From NCBI GenBank assembly GCA_030737835.1, contig CM060848.1, forward strand, positions 14,759,254 through 14,823,253: a stretch of DNA of 64,000 bases. The letters are read 5' to 3'. The stretch's first letter is position 1. Every line of letters starts with the position of its first letter. Below, piece by piece: positions 10,800 to 63,211 of this stretch. Source of the DNA: Acorus gramineus (lineage: Eukaryota > Streptophyta > Magnoliopsida > Acorales > Acoraceae). Under the pieces are notes generated by a model. The model did not search any database. It saw nothing but the letters and a program-made list of their open reading frames with translations, and was not told where the DNA came from. Both the position numbers and the translations under genes were made by a program.

Positions 10800-11589
10800 C
10801 GTTATCAGCACAAAAAGCTCTTTGTTAAAGAGAAAGGTTTGTATTCGGTGGGTTCTTAATGATCTATATCAAAAATATACTCCCCCTTGATGTTATGTAT
10901 TTTTATGTAAATCATCTACTACATACATATGATTAATTTTTTTCAATATGCATGGAACCGTATGCAAATTATGTGTAGAACTCGTATACATCTATCTTTT
11001 ATTTAATGTACTGCATACATCTATCTTTTATTTTCCATGCATGCAATCCCCGTGAAAATTTTCCATACATATGTTATGATATGATTAATTTATGAAAACT
11101 AGTATGCAATTTTCTCATGCAACAGTATGCGGCATCTATCATTTGATTATTTATTTTTCATGTAACTGTTTCATGTTTGTCATCTTTTATTAAAATTTAA
11201 ATATTATACATCTATGTGTAGAACCAGAAGTTCTTACAAATATCAATTAATTTGATATTTATATTTGATTTGAAATTCATTTTAATGTTACAATGTCATG
11301 TGTCCCTATAGGATCATACAAAAATTGTAATTACATGGATCCCTGAGGACCATGTAGAAGTTATAAATAATGTGTTCCAATTAAGACCATGTAAATTTTA
11401 TTCTATCCCTGAAGGACTACAAAAATTATTACATGGATCCTTGAAGAATCATGTAAAAGATGTGATTAAAAATGTCCCTGAAGCACTATGATTATATTGT
11501 ATCCATGAAGGATCATACAAATTTTATTTTATTATATCCCTGACGGACTGTACAAAAATTATGATTATATGAATTTTTGAAGGATCATG

Positions 11590-13464: not shown

Positions 13465-15818
13465 TTGATGACATATTTATCATACAAAGTAGATTCTCCT
13501 TCTATTATAAGATATCTTGAACCATTGACAGGGGATGGTTTTACCGCTCGATTTGCGGAATGTCATTTTGATGAGACAATATTCCCGTCGTTAGGGGGAG
13601 AAAATCCGTCGCCAGAAGAACGACGTGAATTTACATGGCAAACTCCATCTTTGTCTCATCTTGATCCTCACACTAATCAATGTGAAACTGAAGTGCAAAG
13701 AATCACCCATCTTCAAAGAATTGCGCATCAATTGCCAGATGCATTCAATGATGCAGCAAAAGTGATGAAATCACATATTCCAGCTGCTAATACTCCAGCT
13801 CGAATTAATGTTCCAATAGGAAAAACTGTTAATATGCCGGCTAATGAATCAACAAAAACACGCCTGAAGCGTGGAAGACCTATAGGCTCAAAAGATTCAG
13901 CTCCCCGAAGGAGAAAAACAATGAAGAATAATTCTCTAGAAGAGTATGAAACACTTGAAAGACCCACAATAATAACTCCTACAGAGGAAGAAGCCTCTGA
14001 AGTGACACAAGTCCTCGAAGAGACTGACGTCCCTGAAGTGACGCCCGTGCATGAAGAACAAGTACATGGAAATGAAGAAATTTCCATAAATTATGCAAAT
14101 TCACAAATATTGTGGGATCGAAAGCAAGTGCTTGTTGATGATATATTCTCATTTGCAGTAGCTACAGAAATCATTTCAGATAATGATTTAGAACCACGTT
14201 CAGTGGATGAATGCAGACAAAAAAATTGTTGGCCACAATGGAAAGCTGCTATTCAAACAGAATTGGATTCACTTGCAAAACACCAAGTATTTGGACCAGT
14301 AGTCCTAACCCCTGAAGGTGTTAAACCAGTAGGATGTAAATGGGTGTTTGCGAGAAAACGAAATGAAAGAAACGAGATTGTTAGATACAAAGCTCGTCTT
14401 GTGGCACAGGGTTTCCTGCAGAGACCTGGGATAGATTTTGAAGAGACATATTCTCCTGTGATGGACACAATCACATTTCGGTATTTAATTAGTCTTGTAG
14501 TCTCAGAAGGACTTGACATGCAGCTAATGGATGTGGTTACTGCATATTTATATGGAAAATTAGATACCGACATTTATATGAAAGTTCCTGAAGGACTAAA
14601 ATTGCCTGAAGCAAAACCACGAAACATGTACTCAATCAAGCTAAGACGATCCTTGTATGGGTTAAAGCAATCTGGACGAATGTGGTATAACCGTCTTAGT
14701 GAGTACTTAATAAAAGAAGGATATGTCAATGATCCAATATGCCCCTATGTTTTTATTAAGAAAACGGAACTCGGATTTACCATTATTGCAGTATATGTTG
14801 ATGATATTAATCTAATTGGGACTCCTGAAGAGCTCGAAAAGGCTTCCGAATATCTGAAAAAGGAGTTTGAAATGAAAGATCTTGGAAAAACAAGATATTG
14901 TCTCGGCTTGCAAATTGAGCAAAGTTCAAATGGGATACTTGTTCATCAAACAACATATGTTGAAAAAATCCTGAAGCGTTTTAATATGGACAAATGTCAT
15001 CCATTAAGTACTCCAATGGTAGTAAGGTTACTTGACCCAAAGAAGGATCCTTTTCGTCCAAAAGAAGATACTGAAAATCTTCTTGGTCCTGAAGTACCAT
15101 ATCTTAGTGCAATTGGTGCCTTATTATATTTGGCCAATGCACTAGACCTGACATTGCATTTTCAGTTAATTTATTGGCCAGATTTAGCTCTGCACCAACT
15201 CGAAGGCATTGGAATGGTGTGAAGCACATTTTTCGTTATCTTCGTGGAACGTCAGACATGGGTCTATTCTATGCAAAGGATTCCAATAATGGTGCACAAC
15301 TAAAGGGTTATGCAGATTCAGGATATCTTTCAGATCCTCACAAGGCTCGCTCACAAACAGGTTATGTATTCACTTGCGGTGGCACAGCAATCTCTTGGCG
15401 ATCTACGAAACAGACTTTGGTCGCCACGTCTTCTAACCACTCTGAGATTCTTGCACTCCACGAAGCAAGCCGGGAATGCGTGTGGATAAGGTCTTTGGTT
15501 CATCATATTCGTACTGCATGCGGACTATCTCTCATTACAGATGTTCCAACAACTATATATGAAGACAATGCAGCATGCATTGCTCAAATCAAAGGGGGAT
15601 ATATCAAGGGTGATAGAACAAAGCATATTTCTCCAAAATTCTTTTACACTCATGAGCTCCAGCAGAGACATGAAATTGATGTTCAACAAATTCAGTCAAA
15701 GGACAATCTTGCAGATTTGTTTACTAAAGCTTTGTCGACATCAACATTCAAGAAGCTGGTGTATGAAATCGGGATGCGACGAGTTTGCGACCAAATTCTT
15801 GAAATCTTGTACTTATGA
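13465..15818 (+). pseudogene. Copia pol remnants (integrase tail, RT, RNase H regions)
   Basis: Recognisable Copia signatures: FTARFAECHFDETIFPSLGG (integrase C-terminal), KWVFARKRNERNEIVRYKAR and AVYVDDINLIG (reverse transcriptase), and the RNase H/terminal region with TSSNHSEILALHEASREC and KHISPKFFYTHE. These are fossil pieces of one element, not a host gene. A short part of the integrase-tail region is present twice (about 13095 and 13541). Confidence 0.88.
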
Positions 15819-18441: not shown

Positions 18442-18882
18442 TCACGAGGACAAGGCGAGCGCGCACTGGATCTTGGCCGCCTCGAGATCTGCGGCCTTCT
18501 TCAGGAAGCTGAACCCGTCGTCCTCCACGGCCACCTGTATCGGCGCGGACCCGAGCCCGTCCGCAATGGCGAGCATTATGTTCCTCACCTCTGCCCGGAA
18601 CTCCCCGACATCGACGGCCCCGCTCCCGTCGCAGTCGAACTGATCAAATATCGAGTCGTACAAGGCCGACACCTGGTCGGGGTGCGGCGGCGCCACATCC
18701 TCCCCGAAATGGGTCTCGAAGAGGCGGAACGTCTCGCACGCCCTGCGCAGCTCCTCCCGCGAGAGGACGCCGTTGCTGTCGATGTCGAGCGCCTCGAACG
18801 CCTCGTCCGCACTCGCGTTGAAGGCCTTCTCGTCGCTCACGAAGGCCCGCACCGTCGACCCGTCTAGTATCACAACCGCCAT
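18442..18882 (-). CDS. EF-hand calcium-binding protein, copy 2
   Basis: Second copy of the 146-residue two-EF-hand protein (copy 1 at 7956-8396), intronless, with loops DIDSNGVLSREE and DCDGSGAVDVGE at the same positions. Substitutions relative to copy 1 are D30E, A92V and M99V; none touches a calcium-coordinating position of either loop. Homology continues through the 5' leader and promoter (to about 19082) and into the 3' flank, where a GCGCGCGC-containing UTR is kept. Both copies look intact, so both may be expressed. The role is inferred as a soluble Ca2+ sensor; the partner is unknown. The longer frame starting upstream near 19140 runs through the promoter and is not the real start. Confidence 0.9.
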   Translation of the reverse strand: MAVVILDGSTVRAFVSDEKAFNASADEAFEALDIDSNGVLSREELRRACETFRLFETHFGEDVAPPHPDQVSALYDSIFDQFDCDGSGAVDVGEFRAEVRNIMLAIADGLGSAPIQVAVEDDGFSFLKKAADLEAAKIQCALALSS

Positions 18883-18956
18883 TTTTTGTTTCTTTTGTTT
18901 TCTTTGTATTTTTTTTTTGTTTTGTATGTGATTCTTGATTGTGTTGGTTGGTTGGG

Positions 18957-18965
18957 TATTTATAG
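18957..18965 (-). promoter_or_regulatory. TATA box of EF-hand copy 2
   Basis: CTATAAATA on the minus strand, same position relative to the ATG as in copy 1, embedded in conserved upstream sequence. Confidence 0.65.
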
Positions 18966-19683
18966 GTTTTTTTTGGTGGGTGGTTTTGTTGTGTTGGTTG
19001 GGCACCGGATTCTTTTTTTTGGTTTCCAATGGGTTGGAGACTTGGAGTGAAAGAAGAATATATTCAAAAGGATTGGTCAGTTTTAGAGTGTTGTTACACT
19101 CAGTTTTTTTCTTAGTCCAAAACACATTCCTATATATCACGTTAGAAATCTAGTGAAGCATTTATCTCGTCAGATGTTGTATATACCACATTAAATATTT
19201 TTTTACACTTACTAAAAATTTGTTCATTCAACTCGAAATAAAATAATATATATTTTTTGTCAAATAATATATCTCATTAGATGATGCTTACTATTTAAAA
19301 AAAAAAAAAAACACGTGATATCTGAGTTTTGATCGGTGAATATGACTGAGTCTAATATTTTAAAACTTCAACTTTTACAAGGTAGGGTGTCCCTTGACCA
19401 CTTGAGCAAATGCTCGTGGGATGGTTTTGAAAGGTCTTTGGTGTAGAATTCAAGTGGTTAGAAACTTAGAATATCTATAGTTGATTTATTTTTATTTATT
19501 TATTTATTTATTTATTTTTATAGACCGATTTGCTCTGTTTTGCTTACGAATTGAACGAGTTTATGTGAAGAGTTGTTGATGTTGTTCCATTTGTGCCACA
19601 ATCACTGCATCACCCATTTTGTTGTATGTCGATGTTATGCTAATACTCACTAAGGACAACCTTAATCGGTGTTGCATGTTAAA

Positions 19684-56312: not shown

Positions 56313-56423
56313 GGACGGATCAGATTTCTGGCTTGGTTTTTTACCCTCCGAAGAGGGAAAAAAACATGGTAGCACAGTATAATCAGAGTCGATCATTTGG
56401 GGAAAGGATGATCATTTCCATTC
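56313..56423 (-). ncRNA. C/D-box snoRNA-like RNA, tandem copy A
   Basis: On the minus strand: a stem, box C-like ATGATCA (56409-56415, one base off RUGAUGA), the conserved run TCCTTTCCCCAAATGATCG, D' CTGA, a hairpin CCCTC-TTCG-GAGGG, AAACCAAGCCAG, and box D CTGA (56320-56323) closed by TCCGTCC. Last in transcription order of three related copies. The hairpin stem differs from copies B and C but stays paired. Confidence 0.72.
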
Positions 56424-56560
56424 ATTTTCCAAAATATTTATTACAAAATCAAACTTCAATCTGATATATCAGGCGACATCCAAATTTTAATCTAATTCAA
56501 CAATACTAAAAAAAAATCTAGTGAACGTTAAGAGAGTTCTATAAACATAATTAAAATTGA

Positions 56561-56667
56561 GGGATGGATCAGATTTCTGGCTTGGTTTTCTCCGAAGAGA
56601 AAAACATAAAAAAGCGCACATTATAATCAGAGTCGATCATTCGGGGAAAGGATCCTCATTTCCATCC
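56561..56667 (-). ncRNA. C/D-box snoRNA-like RNA, tandem copy B
   Basis: Same layout as copies A and C. Terminal stem GGATGGA/TCCATCC is perfect; box C-like ATGAGGA (56653-56659, one base off); D' CTGA; hairpin TTCTC-TTCG-GAGAA; box D CTGA (56569-56572). Confidence 0.72.
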
Positions 56668-56759
56668 TTTTTTGTTCATTCAAACAGCAATGAAAACACA
56701 TTTGAAATGATTCAAAATCATATAATATAAACCAAAAACTTAGAATCGATTCTAATTTG

Positions 56760-56863
56760 AACGGATCAGAGTACTGGCTTGGTTTTCTCCGAAGAGAAGA
56801 CATTACAAAAGCGCACAGTATAATCAGAGTCGATCATTTGGGGAAAGGATCATCATTTCCGTT
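56760..56863 (-). ncRNA. C/D-box snoRNA-like RNA, tandem copy C
   Basis: Best-formed copy, 104 nt. Terminal stem AACGGA/TCCGTT, consensus box C ATGATGA (56850-56856), D' CTGA about 22 nt later, a TTCTC-TTCG-GAGAA hairpin, and box D CTGA (56766-56769). Relative to copy B the terminal stem has two compensatory pair changes. I do not recognise a named snoRNA or recall an rRNA match for the stretches next to D or D'. Confidence 0.78.
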
Positions 56864-57336: not shown

Positions 57337-57480
57337 ACTGTGGGATGAACAGAGATGTCCGAGCATCTGAATGCGGGCTCCGTATGATAGATGGAGACTG
57401 CCAGAATCTCTGGCTCGGTTCGATCTCGGCAACGTACAGCGCTGTATACGCCATTGAATACGCGTATCAGAGACTCTAAT
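57337..57480 (-). ncRNA. Possible H/ACA-type or other structured RNA
   Basis: The minus strand is GC-richer than its surroundings and carries several short perfect stems (ATACGC/GCGTAT, GCCAG/CTGGC, GAGC/GCTC) and ends CCCACAGTC, an ACA with three trailing bases. Ambiguous H box. No coding potential. Confidence 0.3.
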
Positions 57481-57549
57481 TTGTTGCCTCAACAAAAAAA
57501 AATTCAAAACCGTGATAGATCGATTTAACAAAGAAAACATAAAAACAGA

Positions 57550-57639
57550 GGGCTCAGAAGGTGATTAGAGATATCGACATAGAAAAGCAAAATCTCTTCG
57601 GCGTTTGATGGTATACACTTTTCACATTCATCATAGCCA
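57550..57639 (-). ncRNA. C/D-box snoRNA candidate, different from the triplet
   Basis: On the minus strand, GGCT precedes consensus box C ATGATGA (57628-57634). About 70 nt later comes box D CTGA (57554-57557), whose last base with GCC pairs with GGCT. About 90 nt overall. The stretch before box D is ATATCTCTAATCACCTT. Confidence 0.5.
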
Positions 57640-57894
57640 CAAATACCAAACATAAATGAAAATTAAGAACGAAAACAACAAAATCATATGGAGATAGGGT
57701 TGTGAAAGACCTCAGAAAGCTAGAGATTTGTGCACATCAAGGGAGATCTTACAGATCTCATCAGATGGTACGGACAATTCTCACATCACAGGCCGTTTTT
57801 ATGATGATCAGATCTCGAACGAAATTGAAACAATAGACGAAAATAAAAGCGGATTTTGGTGTACAATGAAGAGGGAGAAACGAAGAGAAGAAAT

Positions 57895-57951
57895 TTAGGG
57901 TTTGTAAACGCTGGCGTGTGAAAATGGTGGGTTCGTCGGTGGTTTATATAG
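57895..57951 (-). promoter_or_regulatory. TATA box and telo-box of the snoRNA locus
   Basis: Minus-strand CTATATAAACC (57941-57951) with AAACCCTAA (57895-57903) about 40 bp downstream, close to the expected start site. A second telo-box-like AAACCCTAG lies on the plus strand at 57959. Telo-boxes are characteristic of plant ribosome-biogenesis and snoRNA promoters. No credible ORF follows, which fits a non-coding transcript. Confidence 0.6.
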
Positions 57952-58212
57952 GGGACGTAAACCCTAGAAATTGATCTGCTGTAAGGAAATTACGATAAAG
58001 GACAAACTATTTTAGTTAATCACGGCTGAGGTTTGATTACTGGGCGCTGTTATAGCCACCCGACAAACTTTCCTAACCCACATCTTTTATTTATAAATAA
58101 ATATATTTTGTTACATTTTTTTTCACAACTAACTCACTCCAATACTATCCATCCCAATGGTACACCCTACTCACCCCAAACATTACCCACCAAACACATC
58201 CCCCATAAATCA

Positions 58213-59143
58213 TATGGAGATTTGGTTCGACATGATCCATGGCTTTCTGGAATCATAAACATTTGAAATGTTCTGTATTCCGTTCGACATGTTCCATGTC
58301 TTCCGTGTTTAATTTGGTTTGACATGGTCCATGTCTTTCTGGAATAAACAAACATTTGAAGTGTTATGTATCTCGTTCGACATGGTCTATGGCTTTCTGT
58401 TTGATTTGGTTCGACATGGTCTATGGCTTTCTGGAATCAGAAACCTTTGAAGTGTTATGTATTATATTCGACATGCTCCATGTCTTTTGTGTGTGATTTG
58501 GTTCGACATGGTCCATGGCTTTCTGGAATAAAAAAACCTTTGGCCCCCGTTTAGAACGGGAATAGAACTTATTATTGGATATACATTTATTCTGGCATAA
58601 ATGAGGATAAAATGATTTTGCATTTGGTTATGTTTTGAATTATTCTCGTTGGTAAATGTAAGAATAACTGTTTTGTTGTTTGGGTAAAATGTGAATAAAA
58701 TATGGATAAAGATTTATAAAAGGTGAAAAAATAATGATAGTTGATTTGACATGTGATTTATAAGAGGTGATGACAGTGGACCCACATATTCTTTGGGTGG
58801 AATAACCTAGGATAACTTTAATTCAAGGGGTAGGTTGGAATCCATATACCACTTTATACTAATTTATTATGACATACTTTATCGCTGCCTATTCTATGTT
58901 TCCAAACACCCTTTATCCCTTATTCTCCTTTATACCATGTTATCCCTTATTCCCATTCCAAACAGGGGCTTGAAGTGTTCTGTATCCCATTCGACATGCT
59001 CTATGTCTTCCGTGTTTGATTTGGTTCGACATGGTCCATGGCTTTCTGGAATAAAAAACCTTTGAAGTGTTCTGTATCCCGTTCGACATGCTCCATGTCT
59101 TCCATGTTTTATTTCGTTTGACATGGTCCATGGCTTTTCTGGA
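58213..59143. repeat. Tandem array of GTTCGACATGGTCCATGG units
   Basis: About five units of some 95-110 bp, each with two related half-units (GACATGGTCCATGGCTTTC and GACATGCTCCATGTCTTCC) joined by CTTTGAAGTGTTCTGTAT or TTTGATTTGGTTC. It lies entirely inside the Mutator-like element and is interrupted by the MITE at 58543-58969. Confidence 0.85.
58543..58969. mobile_element. Tourist-like (PIF/Harbinger) MITE nested in the array
   Basis: 427 bp with imperfect inverted ends GCCCCCGTTTAGAACGGGAA and, complementing the right end, GCCCCTGTTTGGAATGGGAA. Flanked by TTG on both sides. Neighbouring array units preserve the empty site CCTTTGAAGTG, so the 3-bp duplication is certain. TTG differs from the usual TTA/TAA preference. 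Confidence 0.8.
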
Positions 59144-59290
59144 ATAGTGGATGGGGTGGGGTGGAAATGATTTGGGTTGAATATTTATATAAGGGTGGGT
59201 TTATGAAGTAGAGATATATGCCTGGGTGGGGAAGTAAAAGGGGTTGGCAGGAGAGTTTGTGGGGTGGCTATAGCCGCACCCTTGATTATA

Positions 59291-61046: not shown

Positions 61047-63211
61047 TTAAGGCTGACTGTTGGGCAGCTTGATGAGTATGGAATGCTCAGGTTTGTGATC
61101 GCAGTCGAAATCAAGGTGAACGAAAGCTCGCTCGACTTCGGGGAGCTCTTCGATCTTGATCTGCAATGTCTCTCCTATGGTGTGGGCTTCCTTCAGAGGT
61201 AGATCTTCTGGGAGCTGAATGTCGACCTATTTTTGTAGGAAAATGAAGGTGCAAGATATTGAGAATGAATAAATCAATAAAATTGTGCATGGATTTACCA
61301 AGTAAATAAGTAATAAAACATCACCCAGAAGGGCTCCTTAATCAATGATAAAAAGTCTAAAATAACTGAAAAGCCATGTTTATATGAAAGTTGGACAATG
61401 TTTACATATATGTATACAAGTAAATACAGAAGAAACAATTGAAAGGCCCATGTATATCATAACCATACACTTGCAGCCTTTATGTCAGGTGCTGATACAA
61501 TCAGTCATACTTGTTGTCCTCACTTCCCCTAACCAAGTGTATACAAGTTAGGCTAGGAAAAAGCAAAAATGTATGCATTTAATTCATTCATTTTTTGAAA
61601 ATGTAATGTGCTTCTTCAGACAAGTATGCAAGAATGACTGTCCCTAACATTTTCCTTTTTTGTCAGATCAGTTTTAACATCCTCAGTCATTGATCAATTT
61701 GACTGTTGCTCTGCAACAATGTAATAGTTTGAGTCTCACAAACTGGGTTCTAAAAATTCTCATTTCATAATTACACAAACTTAAGCTCCTCAGAGAGAAG
61801 CCATTTGATTCTCTGACAATCTTGGACATTCTGTAATGATTTCCTAACATCTCTCCCACATTTCCACTGCATAATTTCATCAACTTCATTCCTTGATTGG
61901 GGAAATCTAACATTAATCTCTTAGTTCTTAACCCAGTTCTTATATCTCTGTTGCTGAAGAACAATATAAGAAATTGAACGATCATATAGCTAGTTGCACA
62001 AAGTGTGAAGGGGCGCAGGAGTGTGACTGCAAGAGTATGTAATTAAGAGTATCCTAATTCCTAACTAGTTCATGAATCATCACTTAACAGACTGCATCAA
62101 TAATAACACTTGAATTGGTTTTGAATTTTGGTATATGTTTTACATACTGCAACTCAAATCATTTGCAAAAAAACAACCGTCACCAATAATCTAAGGAAAA
62201 AGTGATCTTCGAGATTCAAGGAACTTTATTCTGTATATACATCTCTCTCCATTCTTCGACTAATTCCATTCATATGCCTCTGTTTGTCCGAATTAGATGG
62301 AGGGGGAAACCTACTCTAGTTGAGAAGCAAAAATTAGATTTTGAATTAACATCAATGTTGTTCTGAATAGATACCTGATTCCAAATCAATGTTTTTGGAC
62401 AGAGAAGACAAAGCTAATAGTTAAAGTCCATACTAGTATTAAGATGATGATATTTATCACTTAGCTGTTATATTATGGAGCCTGATTTCTGTGCGCATAA
62501 TATTGTTGGCGCTCCTTCGAGCTCCCCTTTGAACTCGCGGGGATCTTTGTGTGATATTATTATAAAAGAATATCTCATGTTTTTTATTAAACTTTAGGGT
62601 TTTTATTTTTGTTGTGGCCATTGTAAAAACTTCTCGAAGACAGTGGATTGACCTCTGGTGGATTCTGTGGATGTAGGCAAGGTTTGCCGTTAATTCTTGT
62701 GTCTTTCTTTTGATTTGTTTGATTATTTTATAGATCAATTGGTTCCCAAGATCCTCAATTCCTAATTCTAGTCTTTGCATATTGAATGTGGAATTTAGCT
62801 TATACTTATCCAATCAGAACTAAAAGAGATTCATACAAACAGACAGCCCCAGGGGTCAGTACAGATATGGCGCCAAATGCAGAAATATAGGACATCAAGA
62901 TCTACATACTCATTAGTTTCTACATCATTCAAACTAGAGTAAAGGAAAATTCCAGACTTGCTTATGGACAAAATTTGCATCACTTCATTTAAAATTCAAC
63001 CCAACCTTAAAAAGTGATAAAATTCCAAGATTCTGTCATTTAGTTCTATTGTAAATGAACAATATAAAATAACTAACCTCAACAAAATAAAGAACACCAA
63101 AGGTGTATGCTCGAACAGTGTCAACATGTTTAATTTGAGGATCATGCCTTATGACCAGGTATGTCAACTTCTGCAGCACTTCAGGAGGAGCCGATTGTCC
63201 CACAAGAGATA
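61047..63211 (-). CDS. Metal tolerance protein (CDF family, Mn-type MTP8-11 clade), last two exons
   Basis: Two exons on the minus strand, 63078-63211 and 61047-61226 (TAA stop), joined GAG|GTTAGT...AG|GTCGAC. They read [60 protein letters not shown] and end IKLPNSQP. This is the cytosolic C-terminal domain of cation diffusion facilitators, closest by memory to the plant Mn-CDF group (MTP9/10/11-like), which export Mn2+ into vacuole, Golgi or pre-vacuolar compartments. The six-helix membrane part and its DxxxD metal sites lie beyond the right edge; 63212-64000 looks like intron. The 1.85 kb intron contains an LTR-like fossil. Confidence 0.9.
62470..62780. mobile_element. Possible Copia LTR-like fragment in the MTP intron
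   Basis: Contains GTGGATGTAGGCAAGGTTTG followed by TTCTTGTGTCTTTCTTTTG, a word order I associate with the R/U5 region of plant Copia LTRs. No partner LTR or coding part found. Fossil, boundaries uncertain. Confidence 0.35.

What the first reader, a model, noticed from the sequence alone, without database searches (positions are those of the whole stretch)
56313..56863. Three tandem copies of a structured C/D-box RNA with compensatory base changes
On the minus strand each copy has box C, D' and D, a terminal stem and a UUCG-capped hairpin. Between copies B and C two terminal-stem pairs covary (U-A to C-G, G-C to A-U). Between A and B/C the hairpin changes from UUCUC/GAGAA to CCCUC/GAGGG, keeping pairing. 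The loop is UUCG only on the minus strand. Covariation within tandem copies is direct evidence of a selected RNA fold. At about 105-111 nt it is longer than a typical plant guide snoRNA.
Basis: partly seen in the sequence, partly recalled or inferred. Interest (0 to 1): 0.85.

Follow-up and report, generated by a model that had tools for sequence, protein, structure and literature searches.

The report
Three tandem plant snoZ103 snoRNA genes
These are three side-by-side copies of a small guide RNA family already catalogued in plants, in what looks like an ordinary snoRNA gene cluster; the mildly new point is that the RNA resembles an animal and yeast RNA that acts on the large ribosomal RNA near its catalytic centre.

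Summary
On the minus strand, 56862-56761 (A), 56665-56564 (B) and 56421-56315 (C) all match Rfam snoZ103 (RF00149) at 100.1, 94.9 and 83.4 bits, cut-off 44. Cores are 79-89% identical while flanks are at shuffle level, which suggests selection. The compensatory changes are there. Box C is canonical only in A. The length is normal for the family. Upstream on the same strand lie snoR117, a sub-threshold snoR116 match and one or two H/ACA-like stretches, behind TATA and telo-box motifs. Guide plus D'/C' core aligns in register with SNORD12 and snR107, below those families' cut-offs. CUUUCCCC can pair with helix 73 of LSU rRNA, and the D' spacing points to the G methylated by human SNORD12 and fission-yeast snR107. 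The target is inferred: complementarity of this length is not rare by chance, SNORD73 matches the core equally well, and Arabidopsis Gm2396 is assigned to snoR28. New copies of a known family; low interest.

The parts
56761..56862 (-). snoZ103 copy A (box C AUGAUGA 56850-56856, box D CUGA 56766-56769)
   Evidence: RF00149, 100.1 bits, model 1-100 of 100; boxes
56564..56665 (-). snoZ103 copy B (box C degenerate AUGAGGA 56653-56659, box D 56569-56572)
   Evidence: RF00149, 94.9 bits
56315..56421 (-). snoZ103 copy C (box C degenerate AUGAUCA 56409-56415, box D 56320-56323)
   Evidence: RF00149, 83.4 bits
56840..56847 (-). Antisense element 1 CUUUCCCC of copy A (also 56643-56650 in B, 56399-56406 in C)
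   Evidence: identical in three copies; pairs with GGGGAAAG of the eukaryotic LSU consensus
56834..56837 (-). Proposed box D' AUGA of copy A (also 56637-56640, 56393-56396)
   Evidence: register with the SNORD12 and snR107 models; position
56821..56833 (-).
   Evidence: identical in three copies; aligned with C' of SNORD12 and snR107; position
56785..56798 (-). UUCG-capped hairpin of copy A (also 56588-56601, 56344-56357)
   Evidence: pairs listed; position
56776..56782 (-). Conserved CCAAGCC of copy A, candidate second antisense element (also 56579-56585, 56330-56336)
   Evidence: identical in three copies; 7 bp with GGCUUGG of the LSU consensus; 7-nt matches also occur in 2 of 6 control stretches
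57707..57794 (-). snoR117 C/D snoRNA in the same cluster
   Evidence: RF01423, 53.2 bits, cut-off 42
57550..57639 (-). snoR116-like C/D snoRNA in the same cluster
   Evidence: RF01422, 39.3 bits, below cut-off 47, E 2.7e-05
57353..57489 (-). H/ACA-like two-hairpin stretch, ACA at 57358-57356
   Evidence: fold z -2.32 (folded 57352-57489); no Rfam match to an H/ACA family; no strict ANANNA in the hinge
57896..57966 (-). Promoter-like stretch: TAGGGTTT from 57966, TATATAAA from 57950, AAACCCTA from 57903
   Evidence: motif positions; role is inference from recalled plant snoRNA promoters

Best explanation
Three tandem snoZ103 box C/D snoRNA genes form the distal part of a plant polycistronic snoRNA gene of about 1.6 kb, transcribed on the minus strand from a TATA/telo-box promoter near 57,900-57,970 and cut into single snoRNAs. 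Each RNA is packaged by the C/D core proteins and uses CUUUCCCC, two bases before D' AUGA, to pair with helix 73 of 25S rRNA; this places the 2'-O-methylation on the third G of GCGGGG (Arabidopsis G2396 equivalent). A second conserved element, CCAAGCC, pairs with GGCUUGG about 10 nt upstream on the same rRNA and strengthens binding or shields the helix. Shown: family membership, same-strand clustering, conserved parts, in-register similarity to SNORD12 and snR107, complementarity to the LSU consensus. Inferred: transcription, processing, target and the role of CCAAGCC.
For: RF00149 at 100.1, 94.9 and 83.4 bits, cut-off 44. Core 79-89% identical, 80-nt flanks 51-57%, shuffled flanks 53-54% on average. 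snoR117 and a snoR116-like match upstream on the same strand; TATA and telo-box motifs. A 27-nt block agrees with the SNORD12 consensus at 20, 19, 20 positions (A, B, C; 0, 1, 0 of 500 shuffles as good) and with snR107 at 19, 20, 19 (0 of 500 each); four control stretches reach 13-15. LSU consensus GGGCUUGG-8 nt-GCGGGGAAAG: 8 bp in A and C, 9 bp in B, plus 7 bp with CCAAGCC. The D' spacing points to the equivalent of yeast G2395, fission-yeast Gm2483 and human Gm3878 (PMC8536666 passages; PMC11971394 passages). Gm2396 exists in Arabidopsis (PMC8053127 Table 1); yeast U2421 against Arabidopsis U2422 supports the +1 offset.
Against: Complementarity alone is weak: an 8-nt match to the 83-nt LSU segment occurs in 177, 218 and 223 of 2000 shuffles of A, B and C, with a second disjoint 7-nt match in 38, 42 and 65; 7-nt matches also occur in snoR117 and in the H/ACA-like stretch, 2 of 6 controls. 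SNORD73, with a different guide, matches the core even better (23, 21, 23 of 27; 0 of 500 shuffles each; 23.6 bits, E 0.033). SNORD12, DdR2 and snR107 scores are below cut-off, and snR107 is listed for copy B only. Arabidopsis Gm2396 is assigned to snoR28, a separate Rfam family. No plant genome, plant 25S record or RNA data were available.
Confidence: 0.5

Rival explanations
1. It is snoZ103 but acts only as a pre-60S chaperone, like budding-yeast snR190: the two antisense elements hold helix 73 and its 5' neighbour apart during early assembly, without methylation, while snoR28 methylates G2396.
For: Arabidopsis Gm2396 is assigned to snoR28, which the copies do not match at E up to 10. snR190 pairs with the same helix without methylating it (PMC8536666 passages). 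Box C is degenerate in two of three copies.
Against: The register between antisense element and D' is the one expected for methylation, and fission-yeast snR107 and human SNORD12 do methylate the equivalent G (PMC11971394 passages). The snR190 second element pairs with domain I, not beside helix 73.
Confidence: 0.2
2. Copies B and C are decaying duplicates of a working copy A.
For: Box C is AUGAGGA in B and AUGAUCA in C; the Rfam score falls from A to B to C, 100.1, 94.9, 83.4.
Against: Antisense elements, proposed D', C' and D are unchanged in all three while flanks have diverged to shuffle level. The hairpin changes in C are compensatory, and C has the most significant fold (z -3.01).
Confidence: 0.3
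3. One reading: CUGA in GACUCUGAUUA is D' and UGAUCGACU upstream of it is the guide, so the target lies elsewhere and the likeness to SNORD12 is only the shared C/D core.
For: UGAUCGACUCUGA is identical in all three copies, and SNORD73 shows that the core alone can give a strong match.
Against: SNORD12 and snR107 carry C' at this place in an alignment that also matches the guide. Pairing of this stretch was not tested against a whole rRNA.
Confidence: 0.15

Closest known systems
snoZ103 (Rfam RF00149)
   Same: Full-length match of all three copies, 83-100 bits; family consensus also reads as a UCUC/GAGA hairpin
   Different: Loop is UUCG where the consensus has UUug; box C degenerate in B and C
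SNORD12/SNORD106 (RF00581, animals)
   Same: UUUCCCC, two bases, D', GAUCGAC and C' in one register; target Gm3878 by PMC11971394
   Different: Only 16.4-21.8 bits of 43; the extra UUCG hairpin and CCAAGCC were not compared because that part of the model is not printed
snR107 / snR190 (RF04328, fungi)
   Same: AUCGACUnUGA at the same spacing from the guide; antisense element upstream of D' against helix 73
   Different: 15.3 bits of 44, listed for copy B only; fungal second element pairs with 25S domain I, the plant one would pair beside helix 73
DdR2 (RF01569, Dictyostelium)
   Same: CUUUCCCCG and AAGCCA in a gapped alignment, 28.8 bits
   Different: Cut-off 80; ungapped identity equalled by 73-84 of 500 shuffles
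snoR28 (RF00355, plants)
   Same: Assigned to the predicted target, Arabidopsis Gm2396
   Different: Separate family of 78 positions; no match in the copies at E up to 10

Membership tests
snoZ103 (RF00149) | Covariance score at or above cut-off 44 | tested here: met
   100.1, 94.9, 83.4 bits
Box C/D snoRNA | Box C RUGAUGA | tested here: inconclusive
   AUGAUGA in A; AUGAGGA in B; AUGAUCA in C
Box C/D snoRNA | Box D CUGA next to a terminal stem | tested here: met
   three of three copies; copy C with one mismatch and one U-G
Box C/D snoRNA | Binds Fibrillarin and the other core proteins | not testable with these tools
   no RNA or protein-binding data
SNORD12 (RF00581) | Covariance score at or above cut-off 43 | tested here: not met
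   21.4, 21.8, 16.4 bits for A, B, C
snR107 / snR190 (RF04328) | Covariance score at or above cut-off 44 | tested here: not met
   15.3 bits, copy B only
snR107 / snR190 (RF04328) | Antisense element before D' complementary to LSU helix 73 | tested here: met
   8-9 bp with the RF02543 consensus; 9-11% of shuffles also reach 8
snR107 / snR190 (RF04328) | Second element before D complementary to 25S domain I | not tested
   no full plant 25S sequence was available
snoR28 (RF00355) | Covariance score at or above cut-off 45 | tested here: not met
   no match at E up to 10 among 22 listed

The most novel reading that the evidence does not exclude
snoZ103 is the unrecognised plant orthologue of SNORD12/snR107/snR190, a guide and pre-60S chaperone of LSU helix 73, with its second antisense element moved from 25S domain I to the sequence directly beside helix 73, so that both elements clamp one rRNA stretch.
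Probability: 0.35. Interest if true: 0.4.

Novelty: new member of a known kind. Interest (0 to 1): 0.2.

Why it matters
As annotation it adds three copies of a known plant snoRNA family in a mixed cluster. If the helix 73 assignment holds, it links a poorly described plant family to a conserved guide and chaperone near the peptidyl-transferase centre, predicts its target nucleotide, and gives a second candidate guide for Arabidopsis Gm2396 besides snoR28.

Tried and rejected
Plant relatives of the snoRNA core could not be found: a viral contigs pattern gave 0 and no whole genome is held for the window. Recalled LSU patterns gave 0 in viral contigs, 0 in genome contigs and no match in plasmids. 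A shorter pattern gave 8 loci; 1 of 8, L003, holds a eukaryotic LSU fragment. The idea that snoZ103 is Arabidopsis HID2 was dropped because PMC8053127 gives HID2 as U31 (passages). My memory that snR190 box B pairs with the peptidyl-transferase centre was wrong: the paper places it in domain I. A second possible partner of CCAAGCC in the peptidyl-transferase loop rests on my memory of 25S and was not tested. DdR2 as a relative rests on a gapped alignment only. (pair counting) was off register and not used for the pair lists. Pfam and NCBIfam gave nothing for the neighbouring 59-aa frame at 61050-61226. In print, in the library held: 'snoZ103' 0 papers; 'Z103' with snoRNA and plant 0; 'snR190' with Arabidopsis and snoRNA 5 papers, passages read in two of them, neither naming a plant counterpart. 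The rice paper that I recall as the source of Z103 and the Arabidopsis nucleolar RNomics paper are not held.

Full report
What is there. Three copies of one RNA lie on the minus strand at 56862-56761 (A), 56665-56564 (B) and 56421-56315 (C). All three match Rfam family snoZ103 (RF00149) over its full length with 100.1, 94.9 and 83.4 bits against a cut-off of 44. Pairwise core identity is 89% (A-B), 79% (A-C) and 81% (B-C); 80-nt flanks share 51-57%, the level of shuffled flanks (53-54% on average). The duplications are therefore old relative to their flanks and the core has probably been kept by selection (inference).

Surroundings. On the same strand upstream are snoR117 at 57794-57707 (53.2 bits, cut-off 42), a snoR116 match at 57639-57550 that stays below its cut-off (39.3 of 47, E 2.7e-05), an H/ACA-like stretch at 57489-57353 (fold z -2.32; ACA at 57358-57356, no strict ANANNA in the hinge) and a weak one near 57090-56940 (z -1.29 and -1.10 for two cuts). 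TATATAAA starts at 57950 and AAACCCTA at 57903. This is the layout of a plant polycistronic snoRNA gene (recalled knowledge); PMC5122169 states that plant snoRNAs are frequently clustered (abstract; cluster section). In Arabidopsis snoR116 and snoR117 are assigned to 18S U123 and 25S U2114 (PMC8053127 Table 1).

Anatomy, corrected. In the SNORD12 and fungal snR107 models that place is C' (UGuUGAU, UGAcGAU), and the guide is followed by two bases and D' (the C' and D' names of snR107 are from PMC11971394 passages). In the window the same layout reads CUUUCCCC, AA or GA, AUGA, UCGACUC, UGAUUA. Box C is AUGAUGA in A, AUGAGGA in B and AUGAUCA in C; box D is CUGA in all three. The family consensus itself reads as a UCUC/GAGA hairpin although Rfam's structure line marks only the terminal stem. 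Whole-RNA folding is unremarkable for A (z -0.28), marginal for B (-1.77) and significant for C (-3.01). PMC11971394 also describes a predicted stem-loop downstream of C' in snR107, whose deletion had only a marginal effect on methylation (passages).

Relation to SNORD12, snR107 and snR190. Without gaps a 27-nt block agrees with the SNORD12 consensus at 20, 19 and 20 positions (A, B, C; 0, 1 and 0 of 500 dinucleotide shuffles as good) and with snR107 at 19, 20 and 19 (0 of 500 each). Four other stretches of the same cluster reach 13-15 against these two. DdR2 reaches 16, which 84, 73 and 73 of 500 shuffles equal. SNORD73 reaches 23, 21 and 23 (0 of 500 each), because it shares CCCAAAUGAU and CUGAUUA but not the guide, so part of any such match is the common D'/C' core (all). 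By covariance score none of these families is reached: SNORD12 21.4, 21.8 and 16.4 of 43; snR107 15.3 of 44 and for B only; DdR2 22.0, 28.8 and 17.8 of 80; SNORD73 16.2 (A) and 23.6 (B) of 42. On copy B alone the E-values are 0.011 (DdR2), 0.019 (SNORD12), 0.033 (SNORD73) and 1.1 (snR107). The claim is therefore 'works like', not 'is a member'.

Target. The Rfam eukaryotic LSU consensus, shown through an LSU fragment in locus L003, reads GGGCUUGG, 8 nt, GCGGGGAAAGAAGACC. CUUUCCCC pairs with GGGGAAAG (8 bp in A and C, 9 in B; -15.1 and -17.3 kcal/mol for the A and B forms) and CCAAGCC with GGCUUGG (7 bp, -13.5), 10 nt apart, 9 in B. The fifth base before D' AUGA faces the third G after the C of GCGGGG (counted by eye). 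PMC8536666 names yeast C2392 as a base whose change should weaken snR190 pairing and G2395 as the predicted site (passages), which fits this spacing. PMC11971394 (passages) reports that snR107 methylates the equivalent G2483, names SNORD12/B/C and snR190 as orthologues, and gives G3878 for human. The Arabidopsis table lists Gm2396, assigned to snoR28 (PMC8053127, section 12 read); that it is yeast G2395 rests on a +1 offset, supported by yeast U2421 and Arabidopsis U2422. PMC2780460 (passage) gives snR190 and HBII-99 for the Neurospora equivalent and a dash in the column that elsewhere holds plant names (header not seen).

Chance. An 8-nt match to the 83-nt LSU segment occurs in 177, 218 and 223 of 2000 shuffles of A, B and C, with a second disjoint match of at least 7 nt in 38, 42 and 65; of six control stretches of the cluster, two (snoR117 and the first H/ACA-like stretch) have a 7-nt match and none an 8-nt match. 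Complementarity alone is thus weak; the register with D' and the agreement with the animal and fungal guides carry the inference.

Limits. No plant genome, plant 25S record or RNA data could be reached, so conservation across plants and expression were not tested. snoR28 is a separate Rfam family of 78 positions and does not appear among the 22 matches of the copies at E up to 10; whether snoZ103 and snoR28 share the job is open.

Verdict. A real and well-read observation, but an ordinary one: three copies of a known plant snoRNA family, with a plausible and testable link to a conserved helix 73 guide and chaperone.

Noticed in passing
58219-58535 and 58970-59146: Two arrays of a 92-bp tandem repeat (3.5 and 1.9 copies) lie upstream of the snoRNA cluster.
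   Followed up: no
57489-57353, minus strand: H/ACA-like two-hairpin RNA candidate with no H/ACA family match in Rfam at E up to 10; a weaker one near 57090-56940.
   Followed up: partly
13465-15222, plus strand: 585-aa frame with a reverse transcriptase domain RVT_2 (E 9.3e-61), a retrotransposon fragment.
   Followed up: no
18442-19140, minus strand: 232-aa frame with EF-hand domains (E 8.7e-12); 7 of 9 frames searched in that call had no Pfam family.
   Followed up: no
61047-61226, minus strand: 59-aa frame that resembles the end of a plant metal tolerance protein from memory only; Pfam and NCBIfam found nothing.
   Followed up: partly
L003 about 10945-11223, minus strand: A contig filed as viral ends in a eukaryotic 28S rRNA fragment (RF02543, 186.6 bits), probably a chimera or contamination.
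   Followed up: no
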